Below are positions 37,849-40,043 of a stretch of DNA of 64,000 nucleotides, piece after piece (position 1 is the stretch's first letter; every line of letters begins with the position of its first letter). Both the position numbers and the translations under genes were made by a program. Under the pieces are notes generated by a model. It had not been told where the DNA came from and did not search any database. It saw nothing but the letters and a program-made list of their open reading frames with translations. Source of the DNA: Taylorella equigenitalis ATCC 35865 (GTDB lineage Bacteria > Pseudomonadota > Gammaproteobacteria > Burkholderiales > Burkholderiaceae_B); contig NC_018108.1 in the NCBI RefSeq assembly GCF_000276685.1, positions 1,426,001 through 1,490,000 of the forward strand. Reading direction: 5' to 3'.

Positions 37849-38901
37849 ATGACCACAAAAGAATTAACTAAGGAAGATTTTTTCTACGAACTTCCAGCTG
37901 ATAGAATTGCCCAAAGACCTACCGAAAAAAGAACTGAAAGTAAACTTTTACATGTTGGGGCCGATGGATCGTGGGATGATTTAACATTTCCACAAATAAA
38001 AAATTTACTTAAAAAGGATGATTTATTAATTTTTAATGATACTCGAGTCATTAAAGCTAGATTATTCGGACAAAAGTCAACTGGCGGAAAAATAGAATGT
38101 CTTATTGAAAGAGTTATCGCTCCAAAATGTGCTATTGTTCACTTAAGATTTAGTAAAAGACCACAGTCGGGTTCTCAATTATTTTTTAATGAAGGGATAA
38201 CCGCTACTGTTATAGATCAATCAGTAGATGAATTTACATTAGAATTTTCTGAACCAGTTATGGATGTACTTGATCATATAGGACAACTCCCTCTCCCGCC
38301 TTATATTAAGCATAATCCAGATGATTTTGATTATGAGCGATATCAAACCGTATACGCAAAAAGCGAAGGGGCGATAGCTGCACCAACTGCGGGTTTACAC
38401 TTTGATAATAATCTTATTAACGAATTAACTGACATGGGTATTCAGAAATCAATGGTTACCCTGCATGTTGGTTCAGGTACATTTAAGCCAGTTGTGACCA
38501 GCAATCTTAAAGATCACATTATGCATTCTGAATGGTTTGAAGTCACGGAGGAGACTTGTGAATCTATATCAAGATGTCGTCGCAATGGTGGACGTGTCAT
38601 TGCAGTTGGTACTACTAGTGTTAGGGCGATTGAATCTGCTGCCACTCTTGCAGGATTATCTGAAAAAGGTGTGCCATTGCCATACACTGGCGATACTAAA
38701 TTATTTATAACTCCAGGATATAAGCCTTTAGTTATAGATGGGATGATTACCAACTTTCACCTTCCGGAATCAACATTATTAATGCTAGTAGCTAGTTGGA
38801 TGGGATTTGAAACCATGCACAAAATCTATAAACATGCGGTAGAAGCTAATTACCGATTTTTTAGCTATGGTGATGCGATGTACATAGAGCCTAAATCATG
38901 A
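37849..38901 (+). CDS. queA: S-adenosylmethionine:tRNA ribosyltransferase-isomerase
   Basis: Transfers the ribosyl part of SAM to preQ1 in tRNA, giving epoxyqueuosine. Signatures include FYELPADRIAQRP, LIFNDTRVIKARLFG, PTAGLHFD and TNFHLPESTLLMLVAS. 350 aa is normal. Its stop overlaps the tgt start by 4 nt, the usual queA-tgt arrangement. A TATAAT at 37821-37826 in the spacer is a candidate -10. Confidence 0.95.
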   Translation: MTTKELTKEDFFYELPADRIAQRPTEKRTESKLLHVGADGSWDDLTFPQIKNLLKKDDLLIFNDTRVIKARLFGQKSTGGKIECLIERVIAPKCAIVHLRFSKRPQSGSQLFFNEGITATVIDQSVDEFTLEFSEPVMDVLDHIGQLPLPPYIKHNPDDFDYERYQTVYAKSEGAIAAPTAGLHFDNNLINELTDMGIQKSMVTLHVGSGTFKPVVTSNLKDHIMHSEWFEVTEETCESISRCRRNGGRVIAVGTTSVRAIESAATLAGLSEKGVPLPYTGDTKLFITPGYKPLVIDGMITNFHLPESTLLMLVASWMGFETMHKIYKHAVEANYRFFSYGDAMYIEPKS

Positions 38902-40043
38902 TTGATAGTAAATTTAAATTCGAAGTTTTACAGACTCAAGGAAAAGCAAGACGAGCTTCATTGACTCTAAATCATGGAACCGTTCAAACTCCAATGTTTA
39001 TGCCTGTAGGGACCTATGGGTGCGTAAAGGCTATGTTGCCAGCTGATTTAAAGGAAGTTGGTTCTCAAGTAATTTTAGGAAATACATTTCATCTTTGGCT
39101 TAGACCAGGTATAGAAGTTATTGAGAAACATGGTGGTCTTCATGGTTTTATGAATTGGGACCAGCCGATATTAACAGACTCAGGAGGTTTTCAGGTATTT
39201 AGCCTATCAGACCTTAGAAGCAAAATCAAAGAAGAAGGTGTCAAATTTTCATCTCCAATTGATGGTGCAAAACTTTTTCTAACTCCTGAAGAATCTATGA
39301 GAATTCAAAAATCATTAAACTCCGATATAGTTATGGTTTTTGATGAATGTACACCTTACATAATTAAAGATAGACCTGCCACTCATGAAGAGGCTGCAAA
39401 ATCTATGCGAATGTCGTTAAGGTGGGCTCGTAGATCTAAAGATGCCTTTGAAAAACTTAATAATCCAAATGCATTATTTGGAATTGTTCAAGGTGGGATG
39501 TTTGATGATCTTAGGATTGAGTCTTTAAAAGGTCTAACAGATATAGGATTTCACGGATATGCAATTGGTGGCTTATCAGTTGGAGAACCAAAAGAAGAGA
39601 TGAACAGAATAATTGAGTTTTTAGCTCATCAACTACCTGCTGATGCACCTAGATACCTTATGGGAGTTGGAACTCCCGAAGATTTAGTTTACGGAGTGGC
39701 TCAGGGTATTGACATGTTTGATTGCGTAATGCCTACTAGAAATGCTCGCAATGGGACTTTGTTTACTCGTTATGGTGATTTAAAAATTCGTAATGCCCGA
39801 TACAAAGATGACATGAGGCCAGTAGACGATTCATTGCCACCAAACACTAGTAGCAAATTTACACGCTCTTATCTGCATCATCTACAAAAAACCAATGAGA
39901 TAAGTGGTGCTCGTCTCAATACAATACACAATTTAATGTTCTATTTACACATTATGAAAGAGATGAGAGAAGCACTAGAAAAAGGTTCATTTTTGGAGTG
40001 GGTTGCTAAATTCCACGAAGACAGAGCCCGAGGCATTGAATAA
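38898..40043 (+). CDS. tgt: tRNA-guanine transglycosylase lacking the zinc-binding cysteines
   Basis: Exchanges guanine 34 for preQ1 in tRNAs with GUN anticodons. ILTDSGGFQVFSL, GGLSVGEPKEEM and FDCVMPTRNARNGTLF (catalytic Asp) are intact, so the barrel and active site look normal. In E. coli Tgt, zinc is held by C302, C304, C307 and H333. Ungapped alignment between RNARYK and TRSYLHHL puts L313, P315 and S318 where the cysteines should be, while H344 is kept. The protein is therefore predicted zinc-free or differently stabilised. A perfect ATTGCCAC word (39833-39840) encodes exactly this altered stretch. 381 aa; coupled to queA. Confidence 0.92.
   Translation: MIDSKFKFEVLQTQGKARRASLTLNHGTVQTPMFMPVGTYGCVKAMLPADLKEVGSQVILGNTFHLWLRPGIEVIEKHGGLHGFMNWDQPILTDSGGFQVFSLSDLRSKIKEEGVKFSSPIDGAKLFLTPEESMRIQKSLNSDIVMVFDECTPYIIKDRPATHEEAAKSMRMSLRWARRSKDAFEKLNNPNALFGIVQGGMFDDLRIESLKGLTDIGFHGYAIGGLSVGEPKEEMNRIIEFLAHQLPADAPRYLMGVGTPEDLVYGVAQGIDMFDCVMPTRNARNGTLFTRYGDLKIRNARYKDDMRPVDDSLPPNTSSKFTRSYLHHLQKTNEISGARLNTIHNLMFYLHIMKEMREALEKGSFLEWVAKFHEDRARGIE

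What the first reader, a model, noticed from the sequence alone, without database searches (positions are those of the whole stretch)
38898..40043. tRNA-guanine transglycosylase has lost its zinc-binding cysteines, at the site of an uptake-like word
Seen: ungapped alignment to remembered E. coli Tgt maps C302/C304/C307 to L313/P315/S318, while H333 maps to kept H344. Catalytic motifs are intact and the gene is otherwise normal and coupled to queA. The codons for S-L-P-P in this stretch are formed by a perfect ATTGCCAC (39833-39840). Inference: the zinc site was dispensable and its coding region was overwritten by, or became tolerant to, the dispersed word.
Basis: partly seen in the sequence, partly recalled or inferred. 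Interest (0 to 1): 0.62.

Follow-up and report, generated by a model that had tools for sequence, protein, structure and literature searches.

The report
tRNA-modifying enzyme without its zinc site
A tRNA-modifying enzyme thought to need zinc has lost its zinc-holding residues in two sister bacteria and, separately, in a group that includes nitrogen-fixing rhizobia, so the metal can probably be done without; the short DNA word found at the site more likely came along than caused the loss.

Summary
In this Tgt (38898-40043) the three zinc cysteines are L313, P315 and S318, H344 is kept, and a perfect ATTGCCAC covers codons 312-315. The sister species has the same loop and word; the other 120 of 122 first-set Tgt loci keep CxCxxC. 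The gene is not decaying: dN 0.061 against saturated dS between the two species, and ten identical loop residues with four synonymous changes. QueC, QueF and QueH are present.

The new result: zinc-site loss is not peculiar to this lineage. Of 28 low-scoring Tgt genes from a 199-genome phylum sample, 23 lack CxCxxC; named cases are Sinorhizobium meliloti, Shinella and Methylobacterium. None of these 26 has the word there. A tree rejects one origin (AU p 1.8e-6). S. meliloti tgt mutants have queuosine-pathway phenotypes (PMC3568095, passages).

The word is real: 519 genome copies against 45 reversed, and kept at DNA level between species. But word and loss share one branch, so cause cannot be shown. 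I read the enzyme as a zinc-independent Tgt, the word more likely a passenger in a freed loop. Activity and metal were not measured.

The parts
37849..38901 (+). queA (S-adenosylmethionine:tRNA ribosyltransferase-isomerase), overlapping tgt by 4 bases
   Evidence: ORF; name by recall of the sequence and by the queA-tgt-yajC order annotated in E. coli
38898..40043 (+). tgt, tRNA-guanine(34) transglycosylase without the three zinc cysteines
   Evidence: TIGR00430 513.8 bits; one match in the genome; alignment
39834..39851 (+). codons 313-318, the former CxCxxC zinc site, now L-P-P-N-T-S
   Evidence: CxCxxC kept in 120 of 122 loci of the first set
39833..39840 (+). dispersed word ATTGCCAC (within CATTGCCACC) over codons 312-315
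   Evidence: same word at the same codons in the sister genome G004
39927..39929 (+). codon of H344, the remaining zinc ligand
   Evidence: H in both zinc-free loci of this lineage
40097..40456 (+). next ORF downstream, taken as yajC
   Evidence: ORF; name by recall and by the order annotated in E. coli

Best explanation
The gene encodes a working tRNA-guanine transglycosylase that folds without the structural zinc. On the branch to the two small-genome sister species (probably the two Taylorella species) the three zinc cysteines were replaced, at constant length, by a short S-L-P-P-N-T-S-S loop that is now itself conserved. The catalytic barrel motifs are kept, so the enzyme should still place preQ1 in tRNA. 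The dispersed word ATTGCCAC settled in this loop; words are maintained at DNA level in this lineage, and a loop freed from metal binding is a place where one can be tolerated. Shown: the replacement, its sharing, the selection, the fold prediction, the second independent loss elsewhere, the DNA-level retention of words. Inferred: activity of the enzyme, absence of metal, and that the word came with or after, not before, the release of the site.
For: Residues 312-321 identical in G000 and G004, four of those ten codons differing synonymously; gene dN 0.061, dS 2.2 (saturated); residues 298-351 dN 0.048. Catalytic motifs intact, and invariant in the 51-row alignment A1. AlphaFold2 model: mean pLDDT 88.7, pTM 0.90, matching solved Tgt 5v3c over 370 residues at 1.9 A (Z 50.6). 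QueC, QueF and QueH in 7 of 7 genomes of the genus. Zinc-free Tgt arose at least twice: 2 changes on a tree without the trait's columns, one origin in 0% of 200 bootstrap trees, AU p 1.8e-6. S. meliloti Tgt (queA-tgt pair) reads SSCPATRD, with N for H344; its tgt insertion mutant is defective in symbiosis and is not rescued by preQ1 in the HeLa assay (PMC3568095, passages). The word ATTGCCA is kept in the sister at 36 of 54 sites with identical residues, against 6.6 expected from codon-specific rates; seven control words were kept 0-13 times against 0.0-7.7 expected.
Against: No activity, metal content or queuosine was measured here. [quoted passage not shown] coli mutagenesis paper, which I did not read). 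The predicted loop is one of the less certain parts (mean pLDDT 73 for 311-320; 91-110 is lower still, 69 and 63), and the model was built on zinc-binding relatives, so it leans to their fold. Over residues 309-321 dN is 0.086, through residue 311 (D in one species, P in the other). In PMC3568095 the queA mutant had little or no symbiotic defect, which does not fit a simple need for queuosine in symbiosis. The S. meliloti sequence read here is from strain Ak57, the mutant is of 1021, and other replicons of Ak57 were not searched for a second tgt.
Confidence: 0.67

Rival explanations
1. The word caused the loss: repeated import of word-bearing DNA, or selection for the word, wrote TTGCCAC over the first two cysteine codons, and the third cysteine and its neighbours changed afterwards.
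For: Word and loss coincide in both species; words are kept at DNA level; x-L-P is one of the usual readings of the word in this genome; the overlap has a nominal chance of 0.7-3.5%.
Against: One branch, one case, picked after the fact. The second loss has no word at the site. Word sites are only weakly biased to poorly conserved residues: 58 identical of 114 against 69.6, P 0.029; without tgt P 0.073; for the 7-letter core P 0.27.
Confidence: 0.2
2. A small frameshift, repaired a few bases further on, turned codons like ACT TGC CAC TGC into x TTG CCA C.., so that word-like letters already in the cysteine codons were read in another frame.
For: Some relatives carry word-like letters in the C-H-C-H codons, e.g. 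CAT TGC CAT in L090 and L121; 7 of 9 close relatives printed are 2 mismatches from the word. Length is unchanged.
Against: Such near matches are not special to the zinc site: over 119 genes, on average 0.46 of all windows of the same gene are at least as near. Residues 316-319 can be reached in frame by one-base changes from relatives' codons, needing no shift.
Confidence: 0.1
3. The enzyme is losing function (relaxed selection in a reduced genome).
For: Small genome; a structural site lost.
Against: dN is low against saturated synonymous change, residues 298-351 included; three pathway genes kept; the new loop is conserved.
Confidence: 0.05
4. The species generally sheds zinc sites to save zinc.
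For: Host-associated life (recall).
Against: Cysteines are not depleted in 113 genes compared with outgroup stretches: of 342 outgroup cysteines 108 are not kept, of 348 own cysteines 114 are not in the outgroup; 23 of 31 CxC/CxxC motifs are kept, and 2 of the 8 unkept are this Tgt. Zinc-free forms of other proteins were not searched.
Confidence: 0.05

Closest known systems
Bacterial Tgt, NCBIfam TIGR00430 (E. coli and Zymomonas mobilis enzymes)
   Same: Whole-length match, fold, catalytic motifs, queA neighbour
   Different: Three of the four zinc ligands absent
Tgt of Sinorhizobium meliloti, Shinella sp. and Methylobacterium bullatum (Alphaproteobacteria)
   Same: Also lacks CxCxxC, in a loop of the same length
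   Different: Independent origin; other loop letters (SSCPATRD and like); N for the remaining histidine in all three; no ATTGCCA at the site
DNA uptake sequences of Neisseriaceae and Pasteurellaceae (recall)
   Same: A short word repeated hundreds of times on both strands, much of it in genes, kept between species
   Different: Different letters and lineage; uptake was not tested here

Membership tests
tRNA-guanine(34) transglycosylase, TIGR00430 | profile score over the curated cut-off | tested here: met
   513.8 bits against 306.75
tRNA-guanine(34) transglycosylase, TIGR00430 | catalytic aspartate motifs (DSGGFQ; DMFDC) | tested here: met
   present in both zinc-free loci; D94, D272 and D275 invariant in A1. 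Which Asp does what: passages of PMC6165067 and PMC4425180; their mapping to this protein is by recall
tRNA-guanine(34) transglycosylase, TIGR00430 | Tgt fold | tested here: met
   AlphaFold2 model, Z 50.6, 1.9 A over 370 residues to 5v3c; the model leans on an alignment of relatives
tRNA-guanine(34) transglycosylase, TIGR00430 | structural zinc site, three Cys and one His | tested here: not met
   L313, P315, S318; H344 kept. Since 23 of 28 low-scoring members elsewhere also lack the cysteines, I do not treat the site as defining the family
tRNA-guanine(34) transglycosylase, TIGR00430 | exchange of guanine 34 for preQ1 | not testable with these tools
   needs an assay
DNA uptake sequence (word ATTGCCAC) | high copy number over chance, both strands | tested here: met
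   257 + 262 against 23 + 22 reversed
DNA uptake sequence (word ATTGCCAC) | conserved at DNA level between species | tested here: met
   ATTGCCA 36 of 54 against 6.6 expected; ATTGCCAC 11 of 18 against 2.3
DNA uptake sequence (word ATTGCCAC) | preferred uptake of DNA that bears it | not testable with these tools
   needs a transformation assay

The most novel reading that the evidence does not exclude
This lineage has its own DNA uptake word, and the pressure to carry the word rewrote an ancient structural metal site in a core tRNA enzyme: a genome-level signal at the direct expense of a conserved protein feature, which the protein survived because the site is dispensable.
Probability: 0.17. 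Interest if true: 0.75.

Novelty: new variant of a known kind. Interest (0 to 1): 0.52.

Why it matters
Tgt is described as a zinc enzyme. If two separate bacterial lineages, one of them with a genetically required tgt in S. meliloti, do without the site, then the zinc is a replaceable structural prop, and how the zinc subdomain holds without it becomes a direct question for structure and assay. It also shows a striking coincidence of a word and a lost motif that looks less causal once distant relatives are read.

Tried and rejected
Column-by-column reading of L054, L069 and L115 suggested three further losses; the raw reads show CxCxxC beside an insert. L283 was printed as lost through a gap sign; read without gaps it has CGCPAC. 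Genome-wide loss of cysteines was tested and not seen. The idea that the zinc codons were already word-like was tested against the rest of each gene and is not special (119 genes; L121 fell out as too short). A bias of words to poorly conserved residues is weak and partly due to tgt itself. One of the seven control words, GATTTAG, is itself enriched in the window, so it is not a neutral control. The tree was rebuilt without three long rows (L246, L252, L282) and without the trait's columns. QueG (PF08331) was found in 0 of 7 genomes of the genus, QueH in 7 of 7; QueD, QueE and FolE were not searched.

Limits of the screens. The low-score screen can miss losses: the window's own zinc-free gene scored E 2.4e-29, better than the tail that I read. 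In one search, seven genomes with E above 1e-26 were not read (G098, G130, G158, G205, G217, G265, G306). In one search my 30 genomes were picked by eye from the low end; 17 others with E from 1.3e-19 to 1.6e-18 were not read, four of them scoring lower than some that I took. So the numbers of losses are lower bounds and no rates.

Papers. Searches for a zinc-free Tgt and for an uptake word in this group showed me no paper on either in their listings; searches returned none. Only openly licensed papers are held. PMC3250509 (Taylorella genomes) has no 'competence', 'queu' or 'zinc' in its text and two unrelated 'uptake' passages.

Full report
What is there. The ORF at 38898-40043 is a full-length Tgt, with one match in the genome, which is one contig of 1,732,123 bases. 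No call names the organism. The closest genome, G004, has about 1.6 Mb and a Tgt 93% identical; T. asinigenitalis has 1,638,559 bases (PMC3250509, abstract in the listing). By inference I take the pair for Taylorella equigenitalis and T. asinigenitalis.

The site. In the alignment with solved Tgt chains and relatives the three cysteines are replaced by L313, P315 and S318, while H344 stays. Of 122 loci (L001-L122; L001 is the window's own gene) 117 match a DNA pattern for the intact motif, three more keep it beside an insert (L054, L069, L115), and two, the window's and the sister's, lack it. The five other genomes of the genus keep it (L083, L084, L085, L087, L121).

Order. A 69-residue fragment query found the region in 294 of 300 genomes of the order, G000 among them. 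I picked 28 with low scores or no match: 25 gave a Tgt, of which 21 could be read at the site, and all 21 keep CxCxxC; three were cut off before the site and one was masked. The screen is not exhaustive: the window's own gene scored above that tail.

Phylum. 197 of 199 genomes matched, G000 among them. Of 30 picked from the low end, 28 gave a Tgt, and 23 of the 28 lack CxCxxC. Twenty better-scoring ones that I fetched all keep it. None of these 48 has ATTGCCA on either strand at the site; the window's gene and the sister's do. Named relatives come from plasmid-collection records (5 of its listed hits plus E. coli): S. meliloti Ak57, Methylobacterium bullatum and Shinella sp., all Alphaproteobacteria, lack the motif and the word; Paracoccus ferrooxidans, Sphingomonas parapaucimobilis and E. 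coli keep the motif. The S. meliloti record is titled pSymB but is 3.7 Mb long; its tgt overlaps a queA ORF (name by recall). PMC3568095 lists tgt (SMc01206) and queA (SMc01207) on the main chromosome of strain 1021.

Two losses. On a tree of 58 Tgt rows that I chose (30 with, 28 without the motif) the trait needs two changes. With three long rows and the trait's own columns removed, 55 rows still need two, none of 200 bootstrap trees has one origin, and one clade is rejected at p 1.8e-6. Counts of changes do not give direction; loss is inferred from the wide spread of the motif. Among the 28 without the motif, H344 is H in 9 (the two here included) and N, I, V or A in 19; among the 30 with it, H in 30. 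So the histidine tends to go once the cysteines are gone, and the pair here looks like a younger loss. That last step is inference.

Still selected. Between G000 and G004 tgt has dN 0.061 with dS 2.2, saturated; residues 298-351 have dN 0.048; residues 309-321 have dN 0.086, through residue 311. Codons 312-321 code identical residues with four synonymous differences (315, 316, 317, 319), none within the word. As 69 of 180 conserved four- and six-fold codons are identical anyway, three in a row unchanged has a chance of about 0.06, so this one site proves little for the word. The AlphaFold2 model has mean pLDDT 88.7 and pTM 0.90; residues 311-320 average 73, and 91-110 are lower. It matches solved Tgt chains over nearly its whole length. 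QueC, QueF and QueH are in 7 of 7 genomes of the genus, QueG in 0 of 7, so the last step is probably by QueH.

The word. Counts: G000 519 against 45 reversed, G004 631 against 46, five other genomes of the genus 116-203 against 63-104. In 90 gene pairs ATTGCCA is unchanged in the sister at 40 of 79 sites, and at 36 of the 54 where all residues are identical, against 6.6 expected; of seven control words the largest excess is GATTTAG, 13 of 24 against 7.7. So the word is maintained as DNA. It is not shown to be an uptake sequence.

Word and loss. They coincide on one branch. The chance of an overlap is 0.7-1.2% for a random stretch and 2.2-3.5% given one word in the gene, unadjusted for the choice of this gene. 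The independent loss without the word shows that no word is needed. The literature that I could read treats Tgt as zinc-dependent or its zinc domain as conserved (passages of PMC9508795, PMC6165067 and PMC4425180). In S. meliloti, queC, queF and tgt mutants are defective in symbiosis, queA little or not; preQ1 restored the HeLa-cell effect of queC and queF but not of tgt or queA mutants (PMC3568095 passages). In the passages that I read queuosine in tRNA was not measured.

Verdict.

Noticed in passing
whole window; genome G000 and sister G004: The word (C/T)ATTGCCA(C) is strongly enriched on both strands and kept at DNA level between the two species; a candidate uptake sequence.
   Followed up: partly
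L257-L259, L261-L266, L268-L281, L303, L305, L306: Tgt enzymes of other classes of the phylum (Alphaproteobacteria where named) lack the zinc cysteines, and many the histidine as well.
   Followed up: yes
genus of G000, 7 genomes: QueG found in none of the seven, QueH in all seven.
   Followed up: no
L054, L069, L235-L239, L242, L244 and L115, L229, L247, L250: Two groups of Tgt in the order carry inserts right after or around CxCxxC.
   Followed up: no
L252, L253: Two genomes of one family have a Tgt only 41% identical, with the zinc motif; in one a stop codon lies inside the match.
   Followed up: no
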